DNA from: a virus
IMG/VR virus record: IMGVR_UViG_3300017917_001336
Location: 62,001 to 126,000 of that record
DNA: 64,000 nt
Reading direction: 5' to 3' (one strand)
Shown: positions 32,865 to 43,832 of the stretch, piece by piece
How positions within the stretch are numbered: the stretch's first letter is position 1
How the letters are laid out: every line of letters starts with the position of its first letter
Program-made: the position numbers and the translations under genes
The notes under the pieces: model-generated
Database searches by the model: none
Told to the model about the DNA's origin: nothing
Seen by the model: the letters and a program-made list of their open reading frames with translations, nothing else

Positions 32865-33770
32865 TTAGCGGCTGTTACGCATACACGTTACTTCTACTAC
32901 GCTACGCCAGTTGCTGGGCATACTAACACGAATGTCCGCAACCTTAAGCACCATACGCAGGCTTAGCTCTCGCATACGCTCTGCATTGTTATTAATGTAG
33001 TCTACTACTTCTTGCTTGTCCTCATCAGTTAGCTTGTAGTCATCGAGCATACCGCACTCGTTAACTACCTGCTTGATACGCAACAGCTTCTCACGGGTAG
33101 TATCAATAGTCAGATCCAAATAGTGACAACGTGACTCCAATGCTTCCAAGTGATCGCGCAGCTTCTTTGACTTAACGTGATCGAACTTGATGTTGCTAAT
33201 AAAGATAGCACCACCGTGGAAGTCGAAACTGTTGGGCACACCTTCTTGTCTAAGCAAACGGCTGTCCGTGTTCCAATGGATAGTACGCTTCTTACCTGAG
33301 TCTAGCGCAGCCTTTAGGATGTTCAAGCTAAGGTCATCTAGCAGTACAGAGTCGCAGTCATCAAACACTAGGATGCATTTACGATCGCTGAACTCGTAGA
33401 GCTTTTTGTACAAGCCAATGGCACTCATTGCGCCCTTGACTACTTCGTATTTCTTCAGCTTGGTATCGTTGGCTACATTAGCAAACACATCATGCTTGCC
33501 CAGTACCCGTTCTACACCAAAGCTCTTACCAACACCCGGAGGGCCAGTTACGATCATAGCACGAACATCACCCTTCTTTACAGCACGGGTCATGTCTTCT
33601 AGAATCTGAAAACGTTGGCCCAAACGTTCCATAATACTTTCATCGGACTCGGCTTTGAGCTGGCGCTCTTTTTCTTTAATATAGTCCTTGTCCTGCTCCA
33701 AGCTGGCTGTAGTGCCTGCTGAGCTCTTTTTACCTTTGGGCATGTCTGCTAGTGTCATTACTTTTGCCAT
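32865..33770 (-). CDS. AAA+ ATPase, early
   Basis: 301 residues. A lysine and glutamate-rich N-terminal 60 residues precede a single AAA+ module. Walker A is GPPGVGKS at about residues 76-83, Walker B is CILVFDDCDSVLL near residue 133, sensor 1 is GAIFISN near residue 187 and an arginine-rich segment follows. The protein resembles single AAA ATPases encoded in many large myoviruses, whose role (DNA metabolism or remodelling) is not settled. It has its own sigma70-type promoter and the leader AAAGGAGCGAA, and is the last gene of the early array. Confidence 0.85.
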   Translation of the reverse strand: MAKVMTLADMPKGKKSSAGTTASLEQDKDYIKEKERQLKAESDESIMERLGQRFQILEDMTRAVKKGDVRAMIVTGPPGVGKSFGVERVLGKHDVFANVANDTKLKKYEVVKGAMSAIGLYKKLYEFSDRKCILVFDDCDSVLLDDLSLNILKAALDSGKKRTIHWNTDSRLLRQEGVPNSFDFHGGAIFISNIKFDHVKSKKLRDHLEALESRCHYLDLTIDTTREKLLRIKQVVNECGMLDDYKLTDEDKQEVVDYINNNAERMRELSLRMVLKVADIRVSMPSNWRSVVEVTCMRNSR

Positions 33771-33799: not shown

Positions 33800-33828
33800 A
33801 GTATACTATCGAATGCAGTCTTGGTCAA
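33800..33828 (-). promoter_or_regulatory. Early promoter for the AAA+ ATPase
   Basis: - strand TTGACC, 17 bp, TATACT. The -35 overlaps the stop codon of the upstream small gene. Confidence 0.8.
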
Positions 33829-33983
33829 CTCTTTTGAAACACGCTTTGCACATAGCACTCGGAGCCATATTGGGCTTCTACTAGTGCTCGAGCCTGTTGC
33901 GGATGGTTGGCCTGAACCACTTGGGTAATGTTTCTCAGTTGGGTGTCGCCACCCACTGAGAATGTAACTTCATACATGTTCAT
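33825..33983 (-). CDS. 52-residue protein, function unknown
   Basis: 52 residues: MNMYEVTFSVGGDTQLRN, then QANHPQQARALVEAQYG and ECYVQSVFQ. The pattern (strand, VVQANHPQQARALVEAQYG helix, strand) is typical of small phage proteins. Start overlaps the upstream stop (TAATG); its own stop lies inside the next promoter's -35 box. Confidence 0.68.
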   Translation of the reverse strand: MNMYEVTFSVGGDTQLRNITQVVQANHPQQARALVEAQYGSECYVQSVFQKS

Positions 33984-34324
33984 TAGTCGAGCCTCGAACC
34001 TGCGTAAGCATCAAACCCATACTTGCGGAGTACTTGGGCGCAAGCTTCTGCACCCGCTTCTAGTGTATCCACGTTCTGGACATAGAGCCCGGATGGGTTC
34101 CAAAGCTGGAATGCCTTGTTATAGCTTTGGCGGATGCCTGCTTCTTTGAGTGTGCGACCCAGTTTGGTGTTGCCTTTGATACCCAGGATATCAACCCAGG
34201 CAAAGCCACATGCGAACTGGTCACGTCCGCCTAGTTTGGTTTGGAAGAACAGGGTTGCTGCTTCGGTAGCTGCTTGGCTAGCTTCTGCTACGATGTCTTT
34301 GACTTGCTCGACTGTATATTGCAT
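33983..34324 (-). CDS. Small conserved-type phage protein
   Basis: 113 residues. Helical N-terminus rich in Ala, then DQFACGFAWVDILGIKGNTK and QSYNKAFQLWNPSG, a pattern seen in unnamed small proteins of diverse myoviruses. Leader AAGGAGCGAACC and promoter 34357-34385. Confidence 0.72.
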   Translation of the reverse strand: MQYTVEQVKDIVAEASQAATEAATLFFQTKLGGRDQFACGFAWVDILGIKGNTKLGRTLKEAGIRQSYNKAFQLWNPSGLYVQNVDTLEAGAEACAQVLRKYGFDAYAGSRLD

Positions 34325-34356
34325 GGTTCGCTCCTTGCTGTGTTGTTTAAGTATGT

Positions 34357-34385
34357 ATTATACTATTTCAGGGCCGGGTTGTCAA
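34357..34385 (-). promoter_or_regulatory. Early promoter
   Basis: - strand TTGACA, 17 bp, TATAAT; consensus at both boxes. It lies within the last codons of the upstream 45-residue gene. Confidence 0.88.
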
Positions 34386-34500
34386 CCGTTTGATTCCGGT
34401 ATTTTTGGACTAGACCTTCTGCGGCCATTGCGATGCAGAGTATAGCAAGGAATGCCCAAAGCTCGATGGTCATATAAAATGCGTTGATTACTTCGTTCAT
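34363..34500 (-). CDS. 45-residue single-span membrane protein
   Basis: MNEVINAFYMTIELWAFLAI then LCIAMAAEGLVQKYRNQ: one hydrophobic helix and a basic tail. Start overlaps the upstream stop (ATGA). The 3' third of the gene doubles as the next promoter. Confidence 0.62.
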   Translation of the reverse strand: MNEVINAFYMTIELWAFLAILCIAMAAEGLVQKYRNQTVDNPALK

Positions 34501-34829
34501 GCTGCCTCCTTAAGGGTTAGAATTTTTGCAGGGTAAGTAATAGAACCTTCCCACTCCAACTGGCTCTTTTCGAACTCAGTCATGTAATCATCGGCTACTA
34601 CACCGTAGGACACGATGTATTGGCGTGAGCCTATATCATCCCACTCTACTTCAGAACGGAAGTAGTTGACCAGCTCTGCTAGAGCTTCATCGGAGCGACC
34701 TGCTGCACCCAGCGGATAGAAGTAGTCCTCACCGCCTTTGAACTTCCAATACTGTGGGCACTCGCCGGTGCCGTCCCAATCGTGGGCACCATAGTTTTCC
34801 ATGTATTGGCAAGTAATGTGCAGTTTCAT
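34497..34829 (-). CDS. Small protein, function unknown
   Basis: 110 residues, aromatic-rich. QYMENYGAHDWDGTGECPQYWKFKG near the N-terminus (read with a break at GTG) resembles an unnamed family found in phages of many hosts. Leader AAAGGAGCGAATATG; promoter 34859-34887. Confidence 0.72.
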   Translation of the reverse strand: MKLHITCQYMENYGAHDWDGTGECPQYWKFKGGEDYFYPLGAAGRSDEALAELVNYFRSEVEWDDIGSRQYIVSYGVVADDYMTEFEKSQLEWEGSITYPAKILTLKEAA

Positions 34830-34858
34830 ATTCGCTCCTTTGTTTAACTTATGCTGCT

Positions 34859-34887
34859 AGTATAGCAAATTTGGGCTAGGCTGTCAA
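34859..34887 (-). promoter_or_regulatory. Early promoter with extended -10
   Basis: - strand TTGACA, 17 bp ending TGC, TATACT. Confidence 0.88.
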
Positions 34888-34891
34888 CCAA

Positions 34892-35119
34892 TTAGTCCCA
34901 GCTCTTTTTATCACCGAACTGCTCGTTCCACTGGTAGCCTGCGAGATAGGCTTGAACTTCTGTAGGTGTTAGATCCGTTACACGATCCGATGTGCCAGTG
35001 CCACCAACATAGTAATGTGGCTGGCGTCCACGGCCGTAGTAGCTGTCTGCAGAGCCTCTATCAAAAGGGCCGCCGTGGCGTTGATCGTATGCGTCTCGGG
35101 ATTCGTATGTAAATGGCAT
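34892..35119 (-). CDS. Small Tyr and Gly-rich protein
   Basis: 75 residues from ATG 35119, chosen because AAGGAGCGATACA precedes it; the longer frame runs through the promoter. Central RGSADSYYGRGRQPHYYVGG is flexible, and the C-terminal DLTPTEVQAYLAGYQWNEQFG looks helical. Similar short proteins occur in T4-like and other phages. Function unknown. Confidence 0.72.
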   Translation of the reverse strand: MPFTYESRDAYDQRHGGPFDRGSADSYYGRGRQPHYYVGGTGTSDRVTDLTPTEVQAYLAGYQWNEQFGDKKSWD

Positions 35120-35146
35120 TGTATCGCTCCTTGTTAGTATGTGTAC

Positions 35147-35175
35147 ATTATAGCAAGGAACAGCCAAACTGTCAA
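35147..35175 (-). promoter_or_regulatory. Early promoter inside an inverted repeat
   Basis: - strand TTGACA, 17 bp ending TGC, TATAAT. The -35 box lies in the loop of an 11-bp inverted repeat (35159-35169 with 35178-35188, one G-T pair). Confidence 0.88.
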
Positions 35176-35203
35176 CCGTTTGGTTGTTGTATTTTTACAA
35201 CAG

Positions 35204-35280
35204 TGGCCTGCCCGGAGGGAATCGAACCCCCAACCTACGGCTTAGAAGGCCGTTGCTCTATCCGGTTGAGCTACGGGCAG
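35204..35280 (-). tRNA. tRNA-Arg (anticodon TCT), CCA encoded
   Basis: 77 nt on the - strand including 3' CCA. Acceptor CTGCCCG pairs with CGGGCAG, the D arm contains AGCTCAACCGGATAGAGC, the anticodon loop is CTTCTAA (anticodon TCT, reading AGA), and the T arm contains GGTTCGATTCC. AGA is a frequent codon in the AT-rich phage genes, so it may supplement the host pool. Confidence 0.95.
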
Positions 35281-35285
35281 ATGAA

Positions 35286-35363
<78 letters not shown>

Positions 35364-35370
35364 GGTTGTG

Positions 35371-35559
35371 TTATCTACTTAGCTGTTTGATTGATTGGTA
35401 GTCACCATCACTGGTTTCTTCGAATACTTCTACAAAGTCGCACCCGTCATTAAATGTACGTTCTGCGAGTTGTATTGCTTCCTTCTTAGAGTGTGTGGTT
35501 TCGATGAGTTCTTGATGGCCATCTAGCTCGGCCCAAACTTCATACTGAGTCCAGCTCAT
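35371..35559 (-). CDS. Small protein, function unknown
   Basis: 62 residues; a beta-alpha-beta pattern (YEVWAELDGHQELIETTHSK then EAIQLAERTF). Overlaps the upstream gene by 20 bp. It lies just upstream of the tRNA genes and is probably co-transcribed with them. Confidence 0.62.
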   Translation of the reverse strand: MSWTQYEVWAELDGHQELIETTHSKKEAIQLAERTFNDGCDFVEVFEETSDGDYQSIKQLSR

Positions 35560-35731
35560 TTCTTTCTTTCTGGTTAAGAAGATCGCAAAGCATCTGTCCT
35601 AGTTGCTCTGCTTCGTGTCTATTGTCTCTTGCAATGATGCAGAGCACCCGCCCAGCTGGGACTGATTTAAAGTCCCTAACAACTACCCTATTAGGGCCGT
35701 AGTCGTCACTGAGCGAGCATCCGTATCGCAT
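35540..35731 (-). CDS. Small protein, function unknown
   Basis: 63 residues; alpha-beta pattern (NRVVVRDFKSVPAGRVLCII, then EAEQLGQMLCDLLN). It begins immediately after the stop of the gene upstream. Unusually it lacks the GGAGCG leader, consistent with translation coupled to the upstream gene. Confidence 0.6.
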   Translation of the reverse strand: MRYGCSLSDDYGPNRVVVRDFKSVPAGRVLCIIARDNRHEAEQLGQMLCDLLNQKERNELDSV

Positions 35732-36097
35732 TTAGAAAGGTGCGTCTTCTGCGTCTGCAGGAACAGCAGCCTTAGCCTTAGTCTTTGACTGTGCCTTAGC
35801 AGGAGCCTTCGCAGGTGCTGCCTTAGCTTTAGGAGCTTTGGGTGCCTTAGGAGCCTTGTCTTCCAAGTACTCCGCAATCGCTGACTGTGCAGCGGCGTCC
35901 TGGAACTCGTCCATAGACTGAAGCTGTTTGACAGCCTCATACTTCGAAACAGCTTCGTCGAGCTCAGCAAGACGAATGTCTTCGTGGCCATGTTTAGCCA
36001 GTACTTTGATACGCATAATATCAGTTGCAAAGCGCACCTTGTACTCGCCATTGAGTTTCGAAACGCCAACGATGTTAAAAGTTTTATCTGTAGCCAT
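35732..36097 (-). CDS. Small DNA-metabolism-like protein with SSB-type acidic tip
   Basis: 121 residues from ATG 36097 (ribosome binding site AGAGGT); a longer frame runs through the promoter. Residues 1-75 form a small domain (TFNIVGVSKLNGEYKVRFA, DIMRIKVLAKHGHEDIRLAE). Then a Lys-Ala-Pro linker (repeats of KAPKAP) leads to the C-terminal ADAEDAPF. That tip resembles the bacterial SSB tail (DDDIPF-type: acidic residues then Pro-Phe) that recruits repair and replication proteins. Related N-terminal domains occur in cyanophages. The mimicry is inference. Confidence 0.72.
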   Translation of the reverse strand: MATDKTFNIVGVSKLNGEYKVRFATDIMRIKVLAKHGHEDIRLAELDEAVSKYEAVKQLQSMDEFQDAAAQSAIAEYLEDKAPKAPKAPKAKAAPAKAPAKAQSKTKAKAAVPADAEDAPF

Positions 36098-36157
36098 TGT
36101 AATACCTCTTTCTGTGTGTGGTTTAAGTTTATATGCCAGTTTCCTTAGCATGTTTCT

Positions 36158-36186
36158 ATTATAAGTTCATTTGCTCGGTTTGTCAA
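36158..36186 (-). promoter_or_regulatory. Early promoter
   Basis: - strand TTGACA, 17 bp, TATAAT; overlaps the 3' end of the upstream gene. Confidence 0.88.
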
Positions 36187-36436
36187 CCGTTTTGTGCCTC
36201 TTTTGGGCAACCAATTTCTCTTTCTCTTTGCCAAATTCCTTTTCTGAGTAGTATTCAATCAAATGGTGTCTAATCATTAGGGTTAGATCCATTCCGGAAT
36301 CATCTGGGCAGATAAATCGGACTGGACAGTATCCCCAACTCCTCGTTTGGACAAACTGGTAATACCAGCGCCTATGATCCTTGTTGTAAGGATCAAAGGC
36401 TACCAGCGGGCGTGAATAATATTCTAACTTACTCAC
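36167..36436 (-). CDS. Small protein with GTG start, function unknown
   Basis: 89 residues; GTG at 36436 overlaps the stop of the small frame before it. Contains PLVAFDPYNKDHRRWYYQFV and CPVRFICPDDSGMDLTLMIR with a lysine-rich C-terminus. Its last codons cover the next promoter. Family not recognised. Confidence 0.6.
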   Translation of the reverse strand: MSKLEYYSRPLVAFDPYNKDHRRWYYQFVQTRSWGYCPVRFICPDDSGMDLTLMIRHHLIEYYSEKEFGKEKEKLVAQKRHKTVDKPSK

Positions 36437-36536
36437 GATCCTCTATCCATAGACGCATAATTGCATCCAATTGGTCCATCGCTTCTTTACTTGCTACCAT
36501 GTGGTTCCAATCCTCTCTTTTCAATGCCATCTTCAT
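36429..36536 (-). CDS. Short candidate gene bridging two genes
   Basis: 35 codons from ATG 36536 (MKMALKREDWNHMVASKEAM then DQLDAIMRLWIEDRE); a start at ATG 36500 with GAGAGGA upstream is also possible. It overlaps the end of the 211-residue gene and the GTG start of the next, the usual coupled layout here. Weakly supported. Confidence 0.4.
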   Translation of the reverse strand: MKMALKREDWNHMVASKEAMDQLDAIMRLWIEDRE

Positions 36537-37122
36537 ACCATTCCTGGACTTCGTCCATTTCCTCTGCTTCATACTCTGCCATTGACTCACTGATACCAAA
36601 CATCTCGTCCAGTTCCTCGCCAATGGTGTCTACAACAGTCTTAGAGTTGGTGCCACCGTAATCGTAGCACTCGTCGTAACCGTCTTCGAACTTGCCCACA
36701 TAAGCCATACCTGGCTCGTAGTAGTAAGCACGAACTTCAAAGCCTTGCTCAACCAACTCTTCGTAAACACCCATAGGAGGGCTCCACGCAGAGTCAAATC
36801 CAAATTCAATAGTGTTGTCTTCTACAACAACAGCCTCAGGGTCATAAGCATCAACATCCCATTTGGTGCCCCAGCGGCCTACGCAGAAGTCATACCAGTT
36901 GCCATAGCCATACTTCTCGACATTTTCAGCAGTCTTACGAACCAATTCAATTTGGTCCGGGTTGTCATCGCTACCCACGCAACCTGCTACAATGTTCAGG
37001 TCCTCTGGAACAGGAATGACGTGTTTAAGGAATCTGCCTTCGCGGACAGCACTCGCAAGCGCCTCTATTTTAGCAGAGTCAGTGTGTGAAATTGTGACGT
37101 TGTTATTGCACCAATTAGGCAT
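36487..37122 (-). CDS. Api92/YubB-like ferredoxin-fold phage protein
   Basis: 211 residues. Begins MPNWCNNNVTISH, the signature of the Api92-like/YubB (DUF1281) phage and plasmid proteins, followed by FLKHVIPVPEDL and NWYDFCVGRWGTKWDV near residue 75. The distal half is very acidic and Tyr-rich. Function of the family is unknown. Leader TAGGAGCGAACT; co-transcribed with the gene upstream (18-bp gap). Confidence 0.82.
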   Translation of the reverse strand: MPNWCNNNVTISHTDSAKIEALASAVREGRFLKHVIPVPEDLNIVAGCVGSDDNPDQIELVRKTAENVEKYGYGNWYDFCVGRWGTKWDVDAYDPEAVVVEDNTIEFGFDSAWSPPMGVYEELVEQGFEVRAYYYEPGMAYVGKFEDGYDECYDYGGTNSKTVVDTIGEELDEMFGISESMAEYEAEEMDEVQEWYEDGIEKRGLEPHGSK

Positions 37123-37140
37123 AGTTCGCTCCTATGTTGT

Positions 37141-37404
37141 TTAAGAAAATTCGTAAAAGGTTACGCTAGGGTCAATGCTCATCAACTCGCGGGCTGCACG
37201 GCGCAGATAAGTTGCACGGTCCTGCAGGGCCTTACCACGCAGTTCGCCATCGCAAGTAAGGTTCTCTGGGCTAAGGTCCGCATCCAAAGAGTTCGCAATC
37301 TTCTGGCGGTCCTCTGCGTTGAGCAGGCTCAAGGCCTTGCTACCAAAGATAGCACCCCAACGGTTCTTTTGCTCTACATAGTGTTCGATAGTTGAAATAT
37401 TCAT
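37141..37404 (-). CDS. Small protein, function unknown
   Basis: 87 residues, helical (KALSLLNAEDRQKIANSLDA, DRATYLRRAARELMSIDPSV). Leader CAGGAGCGAAA and promoter 37434-37462. Confidence 0.65.
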   Translation of the reverse strand: MNISTIEHYVEQKNRWGAIFGSKALSLLNAEDRQKIANSLDADLSPENLTCDGELRGKALQDRATYLRRAARELMSIDPSVTFYEFS

Positions 37405-37433
37405 TTTCGCTCCTGTTTATTTACTATAACTCT

Positions 37434-37462
37434 ATTGTAAGCTCAAATGATCACTTTGTCAA
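37434..37462 (-). promoter_or_regulatory. Early promoter
   Basis: - strand TTGACA, 17 bp, TACAAT. The -35 box overlaps the stop of the upstream gene. Confidence 0.8.
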
Positions 37463-37696
37463 CCGGAACTGATCAATAACCCTATTAGCTTCAGGGAAAT
37501 CGGTGTTGTTTTTCTGCAACATTTCCTCGTCCACGCACTCCATAATCATTAGACGCTGGAGCAGTTCTGCTTGGTGTTGCTGGGCAGGGTCGAGCGCATC
37601 GTACCAGTTGAGGAAGTCCTCTTCGGTTTCAAGTTCGTTCCACATGAAGTCCAGCATCTCCACTTGTTCTTCAGTTAGGTTGTTGATCGTAGGCAT
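37451..37696 (-). CDS. Small acidic helical protein
   Basis: 81 residues, acidic, helical (LTEEQVEMLDFMWNELETEE then AELLQRLMIMECVDEEM). One base separates it from the upstream stop, so it is coupled to the HTH-like gene. Function unknown. Confidence 0.62.
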   Translation of the reverse strand: MPTINNLTEEQVEMLDFMWNELETEEDFLNWYDALDPAQQHQAELLQRLMIMECVDEEMLQKNNTDFPEANRVIDQFRLTK

Positions 37697-37697
37697 A

Positions 37698-37874
37698 TTA
37701 GGAGTTGATAGTTGCGTTAGGGCTGTATTCCTCGTCTACACCGCACCCGTTGGACTCAATCCAATCGTATACGATATCCACAGGACAGCCTAGTTGGACA
37801 GCAATACTCTTAGGGCCATAGCCCTCAATGTAGAGCTGTTCAATGTCGTATGCTAGGTCTTTCAGTTTAGTCAT
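37698..37874 (-). CDS. 58-residue helix-turn-helix-like protein
   Basis: 58 residues. MTKLKDLAYDIEQLYIEGYG then PKSIAVQLGCPVDIVYDWIE has the helix-turn-helix pattern of sigma or resolvase-type DNA-binding segments (G in the turn, hydrophobic anchors). Similar mini-proteins occur in T4-like cyanophages. It overlaps the upstream gene by 8 bp. A DNA-binding regulator is plausible. Confidence 0.7.
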   Translation of the reverse strand: MTKLKDLAYDIEQLYIEGYGPKSIAVQLGCPVDIVYDWIESNGCGVDEEYSPNATINS

Positions 37875-38079
37875 CGTAGGCCTCCTCGCCCAATTCAGTT
37901 ACTTCTTCTTCCAGCACCATTACGTCAATGATGCGAGCTGTTTGATCTTCGTTGCTTACGCCCTGGAACGCAGTACGAAAGGATTGATACTCACCGAGGA
38001 AGTCATAGACATCCATTCGGTCCCAGCCCTCTGGCACTTCAATCTCTTGCCGGAGGATAGTTGTTACATAGGCTTTCAT
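37867..38079 (-). CDS. Small acidic protein, function unknown
   Basis: 70 residues (YVTTILRQEIEVPEGWDRMD, acidic C-terminus EEEVTELGEEAYDD). Overlaps the upstream gene by 4 bp (ATGA) and the downstream gene by 8 bp, with AGGAGGCAGC as ribosome binding site. Confidence 0.62.
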   Translation of the reverse strand: MKAYVTTILRQEIEVPEGWDRMDVYDFLGEYQSFRTAFQGVSNEDQTARIIDVMVLEEEVTELGEEAYDD

Positions 38080-38558
38080 GCTGCCTCCTTCTCTGCTTGG
38101 AACGCAAATGCTTCTTCCAGTGTAAGGAACTCGCCGTCAGTGCCGTAAAAGTCAACAAACCAAGTAGCCTTGCCGTTTACATTGCGCAGGATGTATTCGT
38201 ACTCCTCACGCTGGTGCTCTCGTGCATATTCCTCAAAGTTCTTAAAACGCTTGGCACCCACACCCTCTTCGCCGCGATCGCGACCGTAGAAGGTAGTAAT
38301 TTGTTGGCGTGCTTCTTGCTCTGCTTGGTACTCAGGGGTACCGTACTTGGCTTGTATGTCAAAGCTGTGCTTCTCGCCAATCTCAGGGCCCAGCGAGCTA
38401 ACATCGCCCAAGTCCATAAGCTTCTGCACTTTGAAGGGATCCATGTAGTGATCGCGCAGGATAACACCGTTGTGATCTAAGTAACCGTCCCAGTGGCAGT
38501 AGATCTGATCCACAGTACCGTCTGCGTATTCAATTGCAATAGTTGATCGTGTAGCCAT
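38076..38558 (-). CDS. Conserved phage protein of unknown function
   Basis: 160 residues. MATRSTIAIEYADGTVDQIY then CHWDGYLDHNGVILRDHY is a well-conserved start found in unnamed proteins of many T4-like and other large phages, followed by KVQKLMDLGDVSSLG. The C-terminus is GKATWFVDFYGTDGEF then LTLEEAF. Leader CAGGAGCGAAA and promoter 38590-38618. Confidence 0.8.
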   Translation of the reverse strand: MATRSTIAIEYADGTVDQIYCHWDGYLDHNGVILRDHYMDPFKVQKLMDLGDVSSLGPEIGEKHSFDIQAKYGTPEYQAEQEARQQITTFYGRDRGEEGVGAKRFKNFEEYAREHQREEYEYILRNVNGKATWFVDFYGTDGEFLTLEEAFAFQAEKEAA

Positions 38559-38589
38559 TTGTTTCGCTCCTGTGTGTGTTTAAGCCTTA

Positions 38590-38618
38590 ATTATACAACC
38601 TTTTGGGTCCGCTGTCAA
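38590..38618 (-). promoter_or_regulatory. Early promoter
   Basis: - strand TTGACA, 17 bp, TATAAT; consensus at both boxes. Overlaps the end of the upstream gene. Confidence 0.88.
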
Positions 38619-38851
38619 GCCACTTCTTTGTAGACTTTGTAGCCGTAGATCGCCAGCTTGCGGATAGCCGATTGGATCTCGCCGTAGGTCTCGTTGAGGT
38701 CTTCTAGGCACTTCTTAGCATCTTTGATAGTGTCTGCGGTGCAGGTCTCGCCTGAGTAGATGTGTCTGCAGTCGTAGTAACGATCGCCATCGTCAGTGAC
38801 CAGTTGGTAAGTGCCAAAGGTCTTGTACATTGTCATCTCGCCTGTTTTCAT
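38615..38851 (-). CDS. Small protein, function unknown
   Basis: 78 residues from ATG 38851 after AAGGAGCGAGCG; a longer frame would start inside the structured leader and is rejected. Contains TYQLVTDDGDRYYDCRHIYS then IKDAKKCLEDLNETYGEIQ. It is preceded by an unusually long 210-nt leader. Confidence 0.65.
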   Translation of the reverse strand: MKTGEMTMYKTFGTYQLVTDDGDRYYDCRHIYSGETCTADTIKDAKKCLEDLNETYGEIQSAIRKLAIYGYKVYKEVA

Positions 38852-39064
38852 CGCTCGCTCCTTGTTGATTAATCTGTTGGGGAACTCCGGACTAGCCGCT
38901 AGCACCGTCTGCTAGATCGTCTGCCTTCGTCATTACCGCCTACCTTCTCCGCCGCTTCTCCGAGCTTACGCCCTGTTTCATGTGCTTAGATTGAGCGTGA
39001 CCGTCGCCACTGTCCTAACCCTCTAAGCACCTAACGGTGTAGGTAACCCCTAATTCCTTACTAT
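38852..39064 (-). ncRNA. Structured leader or small RNA, about 210 nt
   Basis: Gene-free, GC-richer than its surroundings and transcribed from promoter 39071-39099. It holds a perfect 9-bp helix (38982-38990 with 39022-39030, GTGCTTAGA and complement) and a 6-bp hairpin (38899-38904 with 38910-38915). Other early genes have leaders of about 25-40 nt, so this long insert is likely a functional RNA, either a 5' regulatory leader or a separate transcript. No known RNA family was recognised. Confidence 0.5.
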
Positions 39065-39067
39065 GTG

Positions 39068-39325
39068 TTAATTATAAGCCCAAACCTCAACCTTGTCAAC
39101 CTCTGCAATAACCCTACTGCCTGTATGGGTAATGTAAACTTTAGTACTATCTGTACCGCCTTCAACTAGGAAGACAGCCATGTAGACGAATTGCCCACCG
39201 TTGCTTATGCCCAGGAACTTGCACGAGCTGAACGCAGGGCCCTTATAGCCATTCTCGCGGGCTAGGCTGTTGAGCGTAGGCCCATTGTAGGAGATAAGAG
39301 TTTTTAGTGTCTCTGGGGTAATCAT
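39068..39325 (-). CDS. Small protein whose end encodes the next promoter
   Basis: 85 residues (LISYNGPTLNSLARENGYK, GQFVYMAVFLVEGGTDSTKV). The ribosome binding site GAGGAG is inside the upstream gene, with ATGA overlap. The final residues V-D-K-V-E-V-W-A-Y-N are encoded by the next promoter: GTTGAC for the -35 and TATAAT for Tyr-Asn. Confidence 0.65.
   Translation of the reverse strand: MITPETLKTLISYNGPTLNSLARENGYKGPAFSSCKFLGISNGGQFVYMAVFLVEGGTDSTKVYITHTGSRVIAEVDKVEVWAYN
39071..39099 (-). promoter_or_regulatory. Early promoter embedded in a coding end
   Basis: - strand TTGACA, 17 bp, TATAAT. Drives the structured leader and the gene at 38615-38851. Confidence 0.88.
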
Positions 39326-39474
39326 TTAGGCTCCTCAATTTTTAAGTTAGACAACACGGCTTCTAGTGTGTCGTAAGCCATTTGCCAACGATCCCCAGGG
39401 ATGTTATAGATCTGACTAATAGCATCGTTGAGAGTAGCTAGAGCCTCTAGCTTCTTGTAGTCTTGCTCAGTCAT
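39322..39474 (-). CDS. 50-residue protein, function unknown
   Basis: MTEQDYKKLEALATLNDAIS then QIYNIPGDRWQMAYDTLEAV: two helices. Overlaps both neighbours by 4 bp (ATGA), as expected for a coupled operon gene. Confidence 0.62.
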   Translation of the reverse strand: MTEQDYKKLEALATLNDAISQIYNIPGDRWQMAYDTLEAVLSNLKIEEPK

Positions 39475-39791
39475 TCTGCATCCTCCTCTACTGCTTCGTC
39501 TTCCAAGCAGTCAAAGCAGTCCTCTACACGATTGTGTCCCTGATAGATAGTGTAGTCGCCAATTTGTGTTTTACATTCTTTGTCAATGTACTCGAAGCCG
39601 CCGTAGTACTCTAAGCTACGGGCATTGTCGCTAACAATAACACGCTCGCCTCTGTCAATGTACACACGGCCGCAACGGATGTCTAGTCCCAGCTTGTCAG
39701 CACTCACCCGTTCCATACCCGCTACAAAACGCTCAATGCCGTAGCTAACCTCGTCTACAACATCCAAAATGCTAGTGCAGTCTTTAAACAT
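39471..39791 (-). CDS. Small acidic protein, function unknown
   Basis: 106 residues with a beta-rich core (LGLDIRCGRVYIDRGERVIV, then SLEYYGGFEYIDKE) and an acidic Cys-containing tail. Leader AAAGGAGCGAAACT and promoter 39823-39851. Confidence 0.65.
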   Translation of the reverse strand: MFKDCTSILDVVDEVSYGIERFVAGMERVSADKLGLDIRCGRVYIDRGERVIVSDNARSLEYYGGFEYIDKECKTQIGDYTIYQGHNRVEDCFDCLEDEAVEEDAE

Positions 39792-39822
39792 AGTTTCGCT
39801 CCTTTTGTTTAACTTAGCCTAT

Positions 39823-39851
39823 AGTATAGCACCGAGGGCCCAAACTGTCAA
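39823..39851 (-). promoter_or_regulatory. Early promoter with extended -10
   Basis: - strand TTGACA, 17 bp ending TGC, TATACT; spacer begins GTTTGGGC, shared with several neighbours. Confidence 0.88.
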
Positions 39852-40072
39852 CCCCATGCTTTCAATAACCCTGCACAGCACACAAGTATTCCCGCAAGGT
39901 TGACAAGGATTTGTGCTTTGTTGCGTACCCTATAGCTCCACATAAAATAAAAGCTACCACCGCATAGCCCTGCTACTAAATTGTAGGGGTACAGTTGGGG
40001 GTAAAAAGACATTAATATGTACATTGTGAGGAGGCACATAGTGCCTGCCCACTGTAGCATATTATTAAACAT
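39848..40072 (-). CDS. Small membrane protein with three hydrophobic segments
   Basis: 74 residues from ATG 40072. Hydrophobic segments MLQWAGTMCLLTMYILMSFY, YNLVAGLCGGSFYFMWSY and AQILVNLAGILVCCAGLL suggest three membrane spans. The size and layout recall small SemiSWEET- or holin-like proteins, but no motif decides. Overlaps the upstream gene by 8 bp. Confidence 0.66.
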   Translation of the reverse strand: MFNNMLQWAGTMCLLTMYILMSFYPQLYPYNLVAGLCGGSFYFMWSYRVRNKAQILVNLAGILVCCAGLLKAWG

Positions 40073-40250
40073 TGTCTGCCTCAAATTCCATTACGTCACA
40101 GCGCAAGTCCTCTACAATGTCCTCAATCCTGCAATGCGTCTCATAGCACACGTCACTGTCACCCAGTGCATCTTGTATAAGTGCGTCTGCGTCCTCTAGC
40201 AATTCCATTGCCTCGCGCAGTTTAGCTGCTTTTTGTTTTGCTGTTAGCAT
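40065..40250 (-). CDS. Small acidic helical protein
   Basis: 61 residues (KLREAMELLEDADALIQDAL, HCRIEDIVEDLRCDVMEFEA). Leader AAGGAGCGACACT and promoter 40281-40309. Function unknown. Confidence 0.66.
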   Translation of the reverse strand: MLTAKQKAAKLREAMELLEDADALIQDALGDSDVCYETHCRIEDIVEDLRCDVMEFEADNV

Positions 40251-40280
40251 AGTGTCGCTCCTTGCTGTTTAAGTGTTTTA

Positions 40281-40309
40281 ATTATAGCGCACATAGCCCA
40301 ATCTGTCAA
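40281..40309 (-). promoter_or_regulatory. Early promoter flanked by a perfect inverted repeat
   Basis: - strand TTGACA, 17 bp, TATAAT. Arms AGCGCACAT (40286-40294) and ATGTGCGCT (40312-40320) are exact complements and bracket the spacer and -35. Confidence 0.88.
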
Positions 40310-40328
40310 CCATGTGCGCTTGTGTTAA

Positions 40329-40661
40329 TTAAAACGCCCCTTCAAAAATTTGTTGTGTTTCGTATGCATACAAATCGCCTGTAGCCTTTTCGCGTACAGT
40401 AATCCAATCCTGTGCATAAAAGCGTTCTTGCTCATATGCGCTACCCATAAAAAAGTAACAGTCTACAGTCTCAAACTCAATCTCGTCTGTAGCAAATTGT
40501 TTAACAATGTATTCACCACATTCATCAGCGTCTAACGCATACCCGTGTTCACCAACGCTACCTAGTACATTAGCAATCCAGCGTTCCTGCTGCTCTTGCG
40601 TGTCCTCTGTGTATGTAATGTCTTGCAGTTTGCACAATTTTACAAAATTACGCTTTTCCAT
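40329..40661 (-). CDS. Small acidic protein, function unknown
   Basis: 110 residues (QERWIANVLGSVGEHGYALD, FFMGSAYEQERFYAQDWITV). Leader AAGGAGCGAAAA. Its promoter is the degenerate site described at 40691-40718. Confidence 0.65.
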   Translation of the reverse strand: MEKRNFVKLCKLQDITYTEDTQEQQERWIANVLGSVGEHGYALDADECGEYIVKQFATDEIEFETVDCYFFMGSAYEQERFYAQDWITVREKATGDLYAYETQQIFEGAF

Positions 40662-40690
40662 TTTTCGCTCCTTCTAATTACAGTACAGCT

Positions 40691-40718
40691 AGTATAGCAC
40701 AGCTAGCCTAGCTGTGCT
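40691..40718 (-). promoter_or_regulatory. TATACT -10 fused to a 23-nt palindrome in place of a -35 box
   Basis: - strand TATACT at 40691-40696. No TTGACA is present 17 bp upstream; instead a near-perfect palindrome, AGCACAGCTAG, C, CTAGCTGTGCT (40696-40718), fills the spacer. It is the only early promoter in the array lacking a -35 and could be an operator or need an activator. Confidence 0.6.
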
Positions 40719-40727
40719 GTGCTTACA

Positions 40728-41051
40728 TTACGCCTCCATGCTAGCAAGCTCGTCCTCTTGCATACCTTGTTCTGTAAAGCTAACAGCAAAGCCTACAGCG
40801 TCACTAATAGCAGTTTCAAACCCACTATCTGTATAAATGTCCCATGTGCTGTTGTGTTGCACATTTACCATTGTATAAAATTCGCTGTCGTAAATGTTAT
40901 TAATAATAGTAATACCTGTTACATTAATAACACGCCCTGCCTCACAGCCCCACAAGCCGTCGCCTGCTGTAGTAACTGTAAATGCACACATAAATTCTGT
41001 AATAATACAGTCTACGTCACGCTCGTAACGCACAAGCACTAATTTTTGCAT
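40728..41051 (-). CDS. Small protein, function unknown
   Basis: 107 residues, beta-rich (FMCAFTVTTAGDGLWGCEAG, RVINVTGITIINNIYDSEFY) with an acidic C-terminus. Leader AAAGGAGCGATGT and promoter 41081-41109. Confidence 0.65.
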   Translation of the reverse strand: MQKLVLVRYERDVDCIITEFMCAFTVTTAGDGLWGCEAGRVINVTGITIINNIYDSEFYTMVNVQHNSTWDIYTDSGFETAISDAVGFAVSFTEQGMQEDELASMEA

Positions 41052-41080
41052 ACATCGCTCCTTTTGCTACTTAAAAAACA

Positions 41081-41109
41081 ATTATAGCACAGCAAGCCCA
41101 AAATGTCAA
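41081..41109 (-). promoter_or_regulatory. Early promoter flanked by a perfect inverted repeat
   Basis: - strand TTGACA, 17 bp ending TGC, TATAAT. Arms AGCACAGCAAG (41086-41096) and CTTGCTGTGCT (41110-41120) are exact complements; the first 8 bases match the arm of the palindrome at 40696. Confidence 0.88.
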
Positions 41110-41134
41110 CTTGCTGTGCTAATAACCCTACAGT

Positions 41135-41365
41135 TTAGTCTATTATTTGCACATTAGCACAGCGCAAAGTCTGCATAGCAGTATTAATGCTTTTTAATAC
41201 TTCTGCTTGTGCATTTACATAATCTGTACTACAAATATCTCCTGTAACTAGTACAGCATTTTTAACAGTTACTACATTATGCTTATCAAAACTAAAAATT
41301 ACGCGATAAGTGTTAAGACGCTTGTTTACTACTACTTTAGCTAACACAGTACAATTTGTTTGCAT
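41135..41365 (-). CDS. Small protein, function unknown
   Basis: 76 residues (TVLAKVVVNKRLNTYRVIFS, then a C-terminal helix QAEVLKSINTAMQTLRCANV). Leader AGAAGGAGCGTGT and promoter 41389-41417. Confidence 0.64.
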   Translation of the reverse strand: MQTNCTVLAKVVVNKRLNTYRVIFSFDKHNVVTVKNAVLVTGDICSTDYVNAQAEVLKSINTAMQTLRCANVQIID

Positions 41366-41388
41366 ACACGCTCCTTCTAAGTGTTTGT

Positions 41389-41417
41389 ATTATAGCGCAG
41401 CTAGCCCAAAATGTCAA
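41389..41417 (-). promoter_or_regulatory. Early promoter
   Basis: - strand TTGACA, 17 bp, TATAAT; spacer TTTTGGGC as in the promoter at 41081. The -35 overlaps the stop region of the upstream gene. Confidence 0.88.
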
Positions 41418-41653
41418 ATCCCTACAGCTTGTAGGGTCTTTAGTTCTTGTTGCAATTCTGCCACACGCTGTTTTTGCAGTTGTGCAATAAACTTGACTTT
41501 TTTAGTTTCGATGTCTTTGCGGAACTTATTAATGCTTACATTTAGCATATAAGAGGTTTGTCCGTAGCTTTGCAGCTTATTTTGTGTTTTGTACACATGA
41601 GCACGAGCGGCAGACATAGCGTATGCGTTTACAGTATTAGCGTATTGACCCAT
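41414..41653 (-). CDS. Small basic coiled-coil protein
   Basis: 79 residues from ATG 41653 (ribosome binding site AAAAGGAAC); a longer frame runs through the promoter and terminator and is rejected. Basic helices, ending in the coiled coil KFIAQLQKQRVAELQQELKT. Function unknown. Confidence 0.66.
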   Translation of the reverse strand: MGQYANTVNAYAMSAARAHVYKTQNKLQSYGQTSYMLNVSINKFRKDIETKKVKFIAQLQKQRVAELQQELKTLQAVGI

Positions 41654-41674
41654 CTTTGTTCCTTTTAAAAATGT

Positions 41675-41703
41675 ATTATAGCACACTTTGGACCCGCTGT
41701 CAA
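41675..41703 (-). promoter_or_regulatory. Early promoter with extended -10
   Basis: - strand TTGACA, 17 bp ending TGC, TATAAT. Confidence 0.88.
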
Positions 41704-41737
41704 CAACCCTAACGACCGTAGGGTCTCTCATGATCCA

Positions 41738-41766
41738 TTGACGCCTAACCCAAAAGGCAGTATAAT
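41738..41766 (+). promoter_or_regulatory. Sigma70-type promoter facing right, no gene downstream
   Basis: + strand TTGACG, 17 bp, TATAAT. It points away from the early array toward a gene-free 110-nt stretch and then antisense to the gene at 41884. Confidence 0.75.
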
Positions 41767-41772
41767 ACATGT

Positions 41773-41885
41773 ATTCGAACAAAGGGGGGTGGACGTCGAG
41801 GCTGGGCGTCAGTTTCTGAGCCTGAAATAAGAAAAAGTGTGGCATCTGCGCCACACTCTAGAATACCCTGGTTGACAGCAGGGTT
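41773..41885 (+). ncRNA. Candidate small RNA A (+ strand)
   Basis: Begins after promoter 41738-41766. Its 5' part shares TTCGAACA and GGGG-n-TGGACG-n-CGAGG with candidate RNA B at 43702. It ends in hairpins GTGTGGC / GCCACAC and CCCTG / CAGGG. No T-run follows on this strand, so the 3' end is uncertain. Confidence 0.4.
41829..41858 (-). terminator. Terminator of the - strand genes at 41884-42425
   Basis: - strand AGTGTGGC, GCAGAT, GCCACACT followed by TTTTTCTT. Ends the two-gene transcript before the next promoter. Confidence 0.88.
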
Positions 41886-42147
41886 ACATGCTCCAGTATG
41901 CCTCGCTGGATGGGCTACAGTATCTGGGCGTATCAAATCGTTCCATGTACTCTTTACCACCCATCATGTTGATCCGCTTGACCATAGTCTCATGGATTTC
42001 ATAGCGGAACCCTTGACTGGCTCGCCACGTATGCTTGACAGTATGCTCTAGGGTCTTGAGGTCTGTAGTATCATAGTCACTATAATGCACTCGGCGCTCG
42101 CCTGCCTTGGTGCGAGCATCCTTTTTGTATATGATAACGGTATACAT
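41884..42147 (-). CDS. Small protein, function unknown
   Basis: 87 residues, basic (MYTVIIYKKDARTKAGERRV, SQGFRYEIHETMVKRINMMG). Start overlaps the upstream stop (TAATG-type). Terminator follows. Confidence 0.64.
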   Translation of the reverse strand: MYTVIIYKKDARTKAGERRVHYSDYDTTDLKTLEHTVKHTWRASQGFRYEIHETMVKRINMMGGKEYMERFDTPRYCSPSSEAYWSM

Positions 42148-42425
42148 TATGCAGCCTCCAACATTGACAGTGGAACGGAGTAGACCATGTTCATGCTAGG
42201 GATATGCACATCGGCCTTCTTGATCTTGATCTTGCGGATCGTTCCCACTACGGTACCACCCAACTTGGCATGGGTCAGTTTAACCTTATCGCCACTGTGG
42301 AAGGTGCAGGCGTTAACCCGGGCAGTCTTTGAACGGGCAAAGGCCACAGCGTCTACAATACTTTGCAGATCCTGCGCAGACCACGCACCCGAAATAATTG
42401 CACGATTGATAGTACCAATATCCAT
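42147..42425 (-). CDS. KOW/SH3-like small protein
   Basis: 92 residues. The N-terminal helix region is SAQDLQSIVDAVAFARSKTA. The C-terminal half, FHSGDKVKLTHAKLGGTVVG then TIRKIKIKKADVHIP, fits a small SH3/KOW-type barrel often used to bind nucleic acid. Leader AAAAAGGAGCGTGAA and promoter 42455-42483. Confidence 0.7.
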   Translation of the reverse strand: MDIGTINRAIISGAWSAQDLQSIVDAVAFARSKTARVNACTFHSGDKVKLTHAKLGGTVVGTIRKIKIKKADVHIPSMNMVYSVPLSMLEAA

Positions 42426-42454
42426 TTCACGCTCCTTTTTGTCTAAGTGTTTCT

Positions 42455-42483
42455 ATTATATGCTCAAACGCACCCGCTGTCAA
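42455..42483 (-). promoter_or_regulatory. Early promoter
   Basis: - strand TTGACA, 17 bp, TATAAT; consensus at both boxes. Confidence 0.88.
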
Positions 42484-42491
42484 CCTACTAA

Positions 42492-42506
42492 GCAGCGGGG
42501 CCTATT
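42492..42506. repeat. GCAGCGGGGCCTATT repeat, copy 1
   Basis: Shares 15 bp with 44414-44428 and 13 bp with 44620-44632. Confidence 0.7.
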
Positions 42507-43209
42507 ATGCAGCTACAGCGATTGGAATCATACGGCGAACGAACCCAGTGGTGTCCTTCTTAGCACGACCCTTAGCCTTAAGCCCTGCGATGCAACCCTT
42601 AGGGTCCAAAAAGCGCAGGTCAGTGTCGTCTGCATTAATTACAGGACGGCCCATGTAAGAGTCTGGGAGCTTGTCAAAGACAGCAGCCACGTTCATACCT
42701 GCACTCACTGCCTTTTGTACGTCTGCTTCGTTACCGTCTGCAGCTGAGAACGTCAAGTGATAGTTGGGCAGGTGTGCTACCTTGCGTCCAAGCACCTTAG
42801 TATAGTCATAGAACTGTACATTGGGGAACTTCTCAATGATACCGTACTTCTCCCAAGCCAAGTCCGATGTACCGTTAAGGCGGAACACGGGTGTCAAACC
42901 CAGCTTCGCAGACTGTTTGATGCCCAGCTTGATGTCCTTCTCCAGCTGAGCCATAAATGCATCACGCTGCTCAAAGAACATCCTAGTCTTGCGAATGCGA
43001 GCCTGCTGGATCATGTTGGTGTTTTCACCGCGCTTGAACATACCACCGCGCCCGGCAGTATTCAAACAGGCAGCGGTACAGCCTGCGGTGCGCTTAGGGC
43101 AAGTCTCCTTACCGGACAGCGTCGCAGGAGCAAGATGCAGAATAAAGCTAAGATAGCCCAATTTTGCACCCTTTTGGATCTTGGGATTTGCAGTACTTAG
43201 AAGTTTCAT
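42505..43209 (-). CDS. Gp88-family phage protein
   Basis: 234 residues. Matches the Gp88-type family of phage proteins of unknown function: LLSTANPKIQKGAKLGYLSF then ILHLAPATLSG and a cysteine cluster CPKRTAGCTAACLNTAGRGG near residues 37-56, followed by NTNMIQQARIRKTRMFFEQR. The C-terminal half alternates strands and helices (FRLNGTSDLAWEKYGIIEKF, VQFYDYTK), suggesting a TIM-barrel-like enzyme; the cysteines could hold a metal cluster. Leader ATGGAGCGAAC and promoter 43241-43269. Confidence 0.8.
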   Translation of the reverse strand: MKLLSTANPKIQKGAKLGYLSFILHLAPATLSGKETCPKRTAGCTAACLNTAGRGGMFKRGENTNMIQQARIRKTRMFFEQRDAFMAQLEKDIKLGIKQSAKLGLTPVFRLNGTSDLAWEKYGIIEKFPNVQFYDYTKVLGRKVAHLPNYHLTFSAADGNEADVQKAVSAGMNVAAVFDKLPDSYMGRPVINADDTDLRFLDPKGCIAGLKAKGRAKKDTTGFVRRMIPIAVAA

Positions 43210-43240
43210 GTTCGCTCCATGTTCGTTTAAGTTAGCCTAT

Positions 43241-43269
43241 AGTATAGCAAGAATTAATAACCCTGTCAA
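43241..43269 (-). promoter_or_regulatory. Early promoter with extended -10
   Basis: - strand TTGACA, 17 bp ending TGC, TATACT. The -35 overlaps the end of the upstream GIY-YIG gene. Confidence 0.88.
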
Positions 43270-43589
43270 CCGTCGGTGTATTGGTCGTTGAGCGAGGGTT
43301 GATGCTGCTTGACCCATGCCCGTTCCCAAGCATAAGCTTCAGCCCGCCCACGTATGACAGCCAGTACTTCGTGTTCCCAGTCTGTCCAAGCACCAGCACG
43401 GATATATTCGTATACAGTCCACGCCTGCTGTTCGTGACGAGCCCGGCTAATATGCTTACGCCAACGCTCTGCCACTGCCTTAGGTACTGTACGGGTGCCC
43501 TTACGGGTCAAGCCCACGTATACATTGCCTTCATGCATAGCAGCGTAGATAACATAGTTTGAATCTTTACGAGCAGTTCTTTTTGTCAT
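43266..43589 (-). CDS. GIY-YIG endonuclease-like protein
   Basis: 107 residues from ATG 43589. NYVIYAAMHEGNVYVGLTRK is a GIY-YIG signature (VIY then YVG), the motif-2 arginine lies in AERWRKHISRARH, and WEHEVLAVI near the end carries the motif-4 glutamate. Single small nuclease domains of this kind occur in phages as homing or host-DNA nucleases. A longer upstream frame is rejected because a consensus promoter ends 6 nt before this ATG, implying a leaderless message. Confidence 0.8.
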   Translation of the reverse strand: MTKRTARKDSNYVIYAAMHEGNVYVGLTRKGTRTVPKAVAERWRKHISRARHEQQAWTVYEYIRAGAWTDWEHEVLAVIRGRAEAYAWERAWVKQHQPSLNDQYTDG

Positions 43590-43595
43590 AGTCGT

Positions 43596-43624
43596 ATTAT
43601 AGCATTCCGAGCCCAAACTGTCAA
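43596..43624 (-). promoter_or_regulatory. Early promoter, leaderless arrangement
   Basis: - strand TTGACA, 17 bp ending TGC, TATAAT, then 6 nt to the ATG at 43589. First promoter of the early array, spacer GTTTGGGC. Confidence 0.88.
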
Positions 43625-43666: not shown

Positions 43667-43695
43667 TTGACAGCCTGCCCAAAATGCAGTATAAT
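43667..43695 (+). promoter_or_regulatory. Sigma70-type promoter facing right for candidate RNA B
   Basis: + strand TTGACA, 17 bp, TATAAT. Divergent from the early promoter at 43596-43624. A 7-bp hairpin ACTCGGG / CCCGAGT (43645-43667) abuts the -35 box. Confidence 0.85.
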
Positions 43696-43701
43696 TTGGG
43701 C

Positions 43702-43832
43702 ATAGGTTCGAACAGCTACACTGGGGATGGACGGCGAGGGTGCGCAGGTGATTCTAAGTTAGTAAGTGCCAACTTAGCCCGTGGTTAAAATACAACAAAC
43801 TAGAAAAACCCGGTTGACAAAACGGGTTTTTG
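43702..43832 (+). ncRNA. Candidate small RNA B (+ strand)
   Basis: About 130 nt between a consensus promoter and a strong terminator, with no substantial reading frame. It contains TTCGAACA and GGGGATGGACGGCGAGG, shared with candidate RNA A, and the internal hairpin CTAAGTT / AACTTAG. The terminator is AAAAACCCG (43804-43812) with CGGGTTTTT (43823-43831). A standalone small RNA is the simplest reading. Confidence 0.62.

What the first reader, a model, noticed from the sequence alone, without database searches (positions are those of the whole stretch)
33800..43624. Array of near-identical strong promoters, roughly one per early gene or gene pair
Sixteen - strand promoters in 10 kb have -35 TTGACA (one TTGACC), -10 TATAAT, TATACT or TACAAT, and a spacer of exactly 17 bp in every case by my count. 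Many add an extended -10 (TGC before the box) and the spacer word TTTGGGC, and feed a repeated leader (TTAAACA ... AGGAGCG). Repeating a full promoter before each small gene, rather than using one operon promoter, suggests duplicated expression cassettes or a strategy to out-compete host promoters at entry.
Basis: seen in the sequence. Interest (0 to 1): 0.7.

Follow-up and report, generated by a model that had tools for sequence, protein, structure and literature searches.

The report
Per-gene early promoters of T4-like phages
A stretch of small, probably early genes in an uncultured T4-like phage carries sixteen near-perfect bacterial promoters with identical geometry. Related phages share this layout, each gene tends to keep its own promoter when its neighbours change, and one lineage has changed the spacing in all its promoters at once.

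Summary
Sixteen minus-strand sigma70-type promoters lie between 43624 and 33800, all with a 17-bp spacer. Shuffled sequence gives about 0.04 such sites at 11 or more matches of 12, against 15 observed. The record is a 147,567-bp virus contig with T4-like genes. The array ends at a homologue of T4 nrdC.10, inside a run of small genes of unknown function. About 117 related uncultured contigs carry the same kind of array: 1408 sites at 17 bp, 17 at 16 bp and 16 at 18 bp. A nested lineage has switched its whole array to 16 bp and TATTAT. A promoter stays with its gene in about 89% of orthologue pairs even when the upstream neighbour differs. Recent duplication is not the main story: units are barely more alike within a genome than between genomes. 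Best reading: a hyperplastic early region of promoter-leader-gene modules, akin to T4-type early promoters and PeSL cassettes, read by host RNA polymerase at entry. Timing and activity are inferred, not shown. Two promoter-driven RNA elements were found alongside. One is a 186-nt structured RNA with strong covariation and no Rfam match. It also occurs in tRNA clusters of contigs up to about 350 kb.

The parts
43596..43624 (-). promoter, TTGACA-17-TATAAT, TGC; start codon about 7 nt after the -10 (probably leaderless gene 43266-43589)
   Evidence: same layout in L045:232
43241..43269 (-). promoter, TTGACA-17-TATACT, TGC
42455..42483 (-). promoter, TTGACA-17-TATAAT
41675..41703 (-). promoter, TTGACA-17-TATAAT, TGC
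41389..41417 (-). promoter, TTGACA-17-TATAAT
41081..41109 (-). promoter, TTGACA-17-TATAAT, TGC; 11-bp inverted repeat with the -35 in its loop
40691..40718 (-). degenerate 17th site: near-perfect 11-bp-arm palindrome ending in TGC-TATACT, no -35; resembles L027:2785 with the loop deleted
40281..40309 (-). promoter, TTGACA-17-TATAAT; 9-bp inverted repeat around the -35
39823..39851 (-). promoter, TTGACA-17-TATACT, TGC
39071..39099 (-). promoter, TTGACA-17-TATAAT; feeds structured RNA B, then gene 38615-38851
38872..39057 (-). RNA B: 186-nt structured RNA, no Rfam match
38590..38618 (-). promoter, TTGACA-17-TATAAT
37434..37462 (-). promoter, TTGACA-17-TACAAT
37123..37145 (-). leader with AGGAGCG but no promoter before gene 36487-37122; L027 carries a promoter at this same junction
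36158..36186 (-). promoter, TTGACA-17-TATAAT; feeds genes 36097-35371 and probably two tRNAs
35147..35175 (-). promoter, TTGACA-17-TATAAT, TGC
34859..34887 (-). promoter, TTGACA-17-TATACT, TGC
34357..34385 (-). promoter, TTGACA-17-TATAAT
33800..33828 (-). promoter, TTGACC-17-TATACT, before the nrdC.10-like ATPase
32865..33770 (-). ATPase, PHROG 1250, homologue of T4 nrdC.10; end of the array
42505..43209 (-). gene in the array, PHROG 1617, unknown function
43667..43695 (+). divergent promoter, TTGACA-17-TATAAT, of RNA element A copy 1
43707..43745 (+). RNA element A core, copy 1
43804..43830 (+). hairpin followed by T-run, probable terminator of RNA A copy 1 (works on either strand)
   Evidence: sequence
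41738..41766 (+). promoter, TTGACG-17-TATAAT, of RNA element A copy 2
41774..41810 (+). RNA element A core, copy 2

Best explanation
This is the hyperplastic early-gene region of a T4-related myovirus. Small genes sit in modules made of a consensus sigma70-type promoter, a roughly 20-25-nt leader with a GGAGCG ribosome site, and one to four ORFs. Shown by sequence: the promoters, their single spacer length, the leader, the clade-wide conservation, the linkage of promoter to gene, and a lineage-wide switch of spacer length. Inferred: host RNA polymerase reads them directly at DNA entry, each module starts its own transcript, and most transcripts read on into the next module because strong terminators are few. 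Because each gene brings its own promoter and ribosome site, modules can be gained, lost and reordered without breaking expression. The uniform geometry is kept by selection for the host polymerase, probably with some copying of promoter-leader sequence within a genome.
For: Non-chance array. The array ends at an nrdC.10 homologue; in T4 that gene also lies in a run of small genes of unknown function. In related contigs, on the ATPase strand upstream, 643 sites have 17-bp spacing against 1-21 at any other length from 12 to 23, and the control DNA has 53 at 17 bp in 1.26 Mb. A fixed leader puts GGAG 17-22 nt after the -10. Promoters follow their genes, with 88.9% retention when the neighbour differs, and neighbours change more at promoter-bearing genes. 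At gene 37122 a promoter is present in L027 and absent in the window and L019, with the flanking gene end and leader alignable. There are 117 contigs of 17-bp type and 4 of 16-bp type, and the 16-bp lineage is a single supported clade nested among 17-bp relatives (100/99 inside a 96/90 clade).
Against: No RNA data exist, so start sites, timing and the role of host RNA polymerase are unproven. The host is unknown. AsiA and RegB homologues were not found with Pfam models, so T4's later shut-off steps cannot simply be carried over. Gene calls are my own and orthologue pairs are not independent, so percentages are descriptive.
Confidence: 0.8

Rival explanations
1. The array arose mainly by recent duplication of one promoter-leader cassette within this genome.
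For: A few relatives hold near-identical copies (L067/L068 four copies, L045, L025). Same-genome leaders are slightly more alike than random draws (0.484 against 0.451 +/- 0.007, none of 200 draws as high).
Against: Window units are 20-69% identical to each other. Spacers are barely above background (0.357 against 0.341 +/- 0.005). Downstream genes are mostly unrelated to one another.
Confidence: 0.1
2. The promoters are PeSL cassettes in the strict sense: composite promoter plus stem-loop that serve as sites of homologous recombination between unrelated genes.
For: Inverted repeats around the -35 or in the spacer are in excess: arms of 7 or more bp crossing the -35 in 8.7% against 2.1% in permutations, spacer hairpins of 5 or more bp in 15.6% against about 4%. 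Neighbours change more at promoter-bearing junctions. The word AGGGTTAT is about eight-fold enriched in the 60 nt upstream.
Against: Only about 28% of promoters have such a stem-loop. Folding near promoters is only modestly stronger than inside genes. A first, unfiltered adjacency test showed no difference. Recombination itself was not observed.
Confidence: 0.35
3. The uniform geometry reflects a phage-encoded sigma factor or polymerase rather than host sigma70.
For: Strict uniformity of spacer length within each lineage, and an all-at-once switch to 16 bp with TATTAT in one lineage.
Against: The hexamers and 17-bp spacing are the textbook sigma70 optimum. The set lies before small genes with the layout of early genes, which normally need host polymerase.
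Confidence: 0.08
4. Most sites are inactive; one or two promoters feed a long operon.
For: Genes are close packed and few strong terminators lie between modules on this strand.
Against: Promoter matches persist at orthologous genes across contigs with 45-75% protein identity, while the spacer sequence between the hexamers turns over, which implies selection on the promoter itself.
Confidence: 0.1

Closest known systems
T4-type early promoters (T4, RB69, RB49, RB43, Aeh1, 44RR)
   Same: Many strong host-type promoters before small early genes, often before novel ORFs (RB69: 57 predicted; PMC1524935). They are described as very strong and good competitors for host polymerase (PMC2988021). RB49, RB43 and Aeh1 prefer G at -33, closer to TTGAC.
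   Different: The -35 is TTGACA rather than GTTTAC; no excess of TTGACA-17-TATAAT in the nrdC regions of T4, KVP40 or PA5oct. Density here is about 1.5 to 2 per kb with one spacer length per lineage.
PeSLs (promoter-early stem-loops) of T4-like phages (Arbiol 2010; Comeau 2014)
   Same: Early promoter units at gene junctions in hyperplastic regions with frequent gene shuffling; stem-loops attached to some units.
   Different: A stem-loop is found in only about a quarter of units. The two papers themselves were not in the held library, so the comparison rests on citing papers and memory.
Start-associated sequences (SAS/ESAS) of Cluster K mycobacteriophages (PMC3203893)
   Same: Repeated units before starts of small genes, some with inverted repeats, that stay with a gene family across genomes.
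   Different: SAS is a 13-bp start-linked word proposed for translation initiation, not a promoter; unrelated sequence and host.

Membership tests
T4-type early promoter set | multiple sigma70-type promoters before small early genes on one strand | tested here: met
T4-type early promoter set | T4 consensus -35 (GTTTAC) with UP element | tested here: not met
   -35 is TTGACA; UP element not assessed
T4-type early promoter set | transcribed by host RNA polymerase immediately after infection | not testable with these tools
   no RNA data, uncultured virus
PeSL cassettes | early promoter combined with a stem-loop | tested here: inconclusive
   stem-loops significantly enriched but in about 28% of units; weak folding signal
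PeSL cassettes | units lie at junctions where genes are shuffled | tested here: met
   upstream neighbour conserved 29.7% with promoter, 43.3% without; the unfiltered test showed no difference
PeSL cassettes | mediate homologous recombination | not tested
   one promoter indel at gene 37122 against L027 is suggestive only
Recent tandem duplication | units of one genome nearly identical | tested here: not met
   20-69% identity in the window
Known RNA family (for RNA B and RNA A) | match to an Rfam 15 family | tested here: not met
   for the window (both), for ten other loci that hold B

The most novel reading that the evidence does not exclude
Spacer length and -10 sequence are locked per phage lineage across the whole array and switch all at once (17/TATAAT to 16/TATTAT), through concerted evolution tuned to the host polymerase. 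In addition, one promoter of the array drives a member of a new, widespread virus-specific structured RNA family (RNA B), which also sits in tRNA clusters of contigs of up to about 350 kb.
Probability: 0.55. Interest if true: 0.7.

Novelty: new variant of a known kind. Interest (0 to 1): 0.52.

Why it matters
Roughly 120 uncultured contigs give some 1400 natural copies of one promoter grammar, plus a related lineage with another grammar. That makes it directly testable how strictly a host polymerase sets spacer length, and how phages change a whole regulon at once. The module structure suggests how phages can take up small genes that work at once. The associated RNA family looks new and widespread, and its function is open.

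Tried and rejected
Chance: rejected. Simple recent duplication: rejected for the window. RegB cleavage of the GGAG leaders and AsiA-based switching: no homologue found by Pfam model in the record, so not claimed. A protein operator at the inverted repeats: arm sequences differ between promoters (41109, 40309 and the 40718 palindrome), so a shared operator is unlikely; a hairpin fits better, but no formal covariation test was made for these arms. First adjacency test: no difference at promoter junctions; it used spurious ORFs as well, and the filtered test did show one. Near DNA relatives in cultured phages: only the tRNAs match. A pattern scan for the spacer word found one contig. Bacterial genomes: RNA B word absent; eight hits of the degenerate RNA A pattern were not inspected and may well be chance. 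Single-sequence folds of RNA B and A are unremarkable against shuffles (z -0.5 and -1.3); the case for B rests on covariation.
Full report
What is there. The minus strand from 43624 to 33800 holds sixteen sigma70-type promoters, every one with a 17-bp spacer. Eleven match the 12 consensus positions completely, four match 11 and one matches 10. On this strand, 300 dinucleotide shuffles give 0.04 sites of 11 or more matches at this spacing, against 15 observed. A leader ending in GGAGCG follows thirteen. The promoter at 43624 instead puts its start codon about 7 nt after the -10, as in L045, so that gene is probably leaderless. A seventeenth, broken site lies at 40691-40718: its -35 is gone and a near-perfect palindrome remains, much like L027:2785 with the loop removed. 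Each promoter serves one to four genes.

Where it is. The window belongs to a 147,567-base virus record. Its large ORFs look like those of a T4-type myovirus by my reading of the translations, and the terminase is closest to PA5oct at 55.5%. The array ends at an ATPase of PHROG 1250, a homologue of T4 nrdC.10. Most other genes in the array have no family. Elsewhere in the record only three more perfect 17-bp sites occur.

It is a clade-wide trait. A search with the ATPase gave 80 related contigs. Upstream of the ATPase, on its strand, sites with 11 or more matches number 643 at 17 bp and 1 to 21 at every other spacing from 12 to 23. With a second set of relatives and a slightly different filter, 117 contigs are of the 17-bp type: 1408 sites at 17, 17 at 16 and 16 at 18. 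The 49 counted at 20 bp are probably second readings of the same promoters with a repeated -10 three bases on; I did not check them one by one. Four contigs (L083, L084, L210, L211) are of the 16-bp type: 67 sites at 16 and 4 at 17, mostly with TATTAT as -10. On an ATPase tree (three of these contigs as rows) the 16-bp type is one supported clade (100/99) nested with 17-bp relatives in a clade supported at 96/90, so one switch of the whole array is the simplest reading. The midpoint root, some long branches and one poorly supported deep fork (80/55) limit this, but the nesting does not depend on the long rows alone.

Modules. With my own gene calls and reciprocal best hits, a promoter is kept at the orthologous gene in 91.5% of cases when the upstream gene is the same and 88.9% when it differs. 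The upstream neighbour is conserved for 29.7% of genes that carry a promoter and 43.3% of those that do not. An earlier, unfiltered version of the test showed no difference; it included spurious ORFs. At gene 36487-37122 the window and L019 have the leader but no promoter, while L027 has a complete promoter between the same gene end and the same leader. These pairs are not independent, so I give no probabilities.

Descent of the units. Inside the window the 35 variable positions of the units are 20-69% identical. Between genomes, spacers of orthologous genes fall to about 0.40 identity once the proteins differ by more than 10%. Spacers of different genes within a genome reach 0.357 against 0.341 for random draws, and leaders 0.484 against 0.451. 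So there is a weak within-genome dialect and an occasional recent copy, but no wave of duplication. The hexamers and spacing stay fixed while the rest turns over, as expected under selection on the promoter.

Stem-loops. In T4-like phages, early promoters joined to a stem-loop (PeSLs) are proposed to mediate shuffling (cited in PMC4503421 and PMC3950731; the primary papers were not held). Here inverted repeats that cross the -35 or lie in the spacer are clearly in excess but occur in about 28% of units, and the folding signal is modest. The arms differ in sequence between units, which argues against a common protein operator, though no formal covariation count was made for them. The arrays therefore work like PeSL regions in respect of shuffling, without a stem-loop being a general feature.

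Function. The most likely use is immediate transcription by host RNA polymerase. For T4 this class of promoter is described as competing extremely well with host promoters (PMC2988021), and early promoters before novel ORFs are common in its relatives (PMC1524935). That step is inference here: there are no RNA data and no known host. T4's AsiA and RegB were not found by Pfam model.

RNA elements inside the array. The promoter at 39099 first feeds a 186-nt RNA (38872-39057). A covariance model built from ten copies finds it in 14 array loci above background, and an exact 19-mer finds it in 74 viral contigs, where the model scores nearly all strongly. On 51 distinct rows, 94.2% of cells pair, against at most 53% when partners are slid; 24 of 37 pairs show changes on both sides, and no shuffle reaches any of the five measures. 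The alignment was fitted to the model, which favours it, but the slid controls fall far short. There is no Rfam match, no blastn match of substance in 50,697 cultured phage records and no copy of the 19-mer in 84,980 species genomes. In many of the other contigs it sits in tRNA clusters, framed by complementary arms and preceded by a word that resembles boxA. Its role is unknown.

The two plus-strand promoters (43667, 41738) each feed a short conserved element, TTCGAA-stem-GGGRTGGACGNCRAGG. Of 29 distinct copies in viral DNA, 28 have a sigma70-type promoter just upstream. The small stem is supported by pairing of its ends (2.85 of 3 pairs, permuted 1.68, none of 1000 as high). In seven viral copies DnaA-box-like words cluster within 450 nt (25 exact against 0.6 expected, counted over all copies including eight bacterial hits that contribute no exact box), but not at the two window copies. 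That hints at a replication origin in some relatives and nothing more.

Verdict. As a kind, this is a T4-type early promoter region; the single spacer length per lineage and its concerted switch are what make it unusual.

Noticed in passing
window 38872-39057 (-); L099-L172: RNA B: 186-nt structured RNA with strong covariation and no Rfam match, in 74 further viral contigs including several over 250 kb, often inside tRNA clusters.
   Followed up: partly
window 43707-43745 and 41774-41810 (+); L173-L201: RNA element A: short conserved element right after a strong promoter; DnaA-box clusters follow it in seven viral copies.
   Followed up: partly
L083, L084, L210, L211: Arrays with a 16-bp spacer and TATTAT; in L210 and L211 nearly all have TGC before the -10.
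   Followed up: yes
window 43589-43596 (-): Probable leaderless start: ATG about 7 nt after the -10, same layout in L045:232.
   Followed up: no
window 35204-35363 (-): Two adjacent tRNA genes (Arg TCT, Met CAT) inside the array.
   Followed up: no
window, 60 nt upstream of array promoters: Word AGGGTTAT is about eight-fold enriched upstream of promoters in the clade, perhaps a terminator relic.
   Followed up: partly
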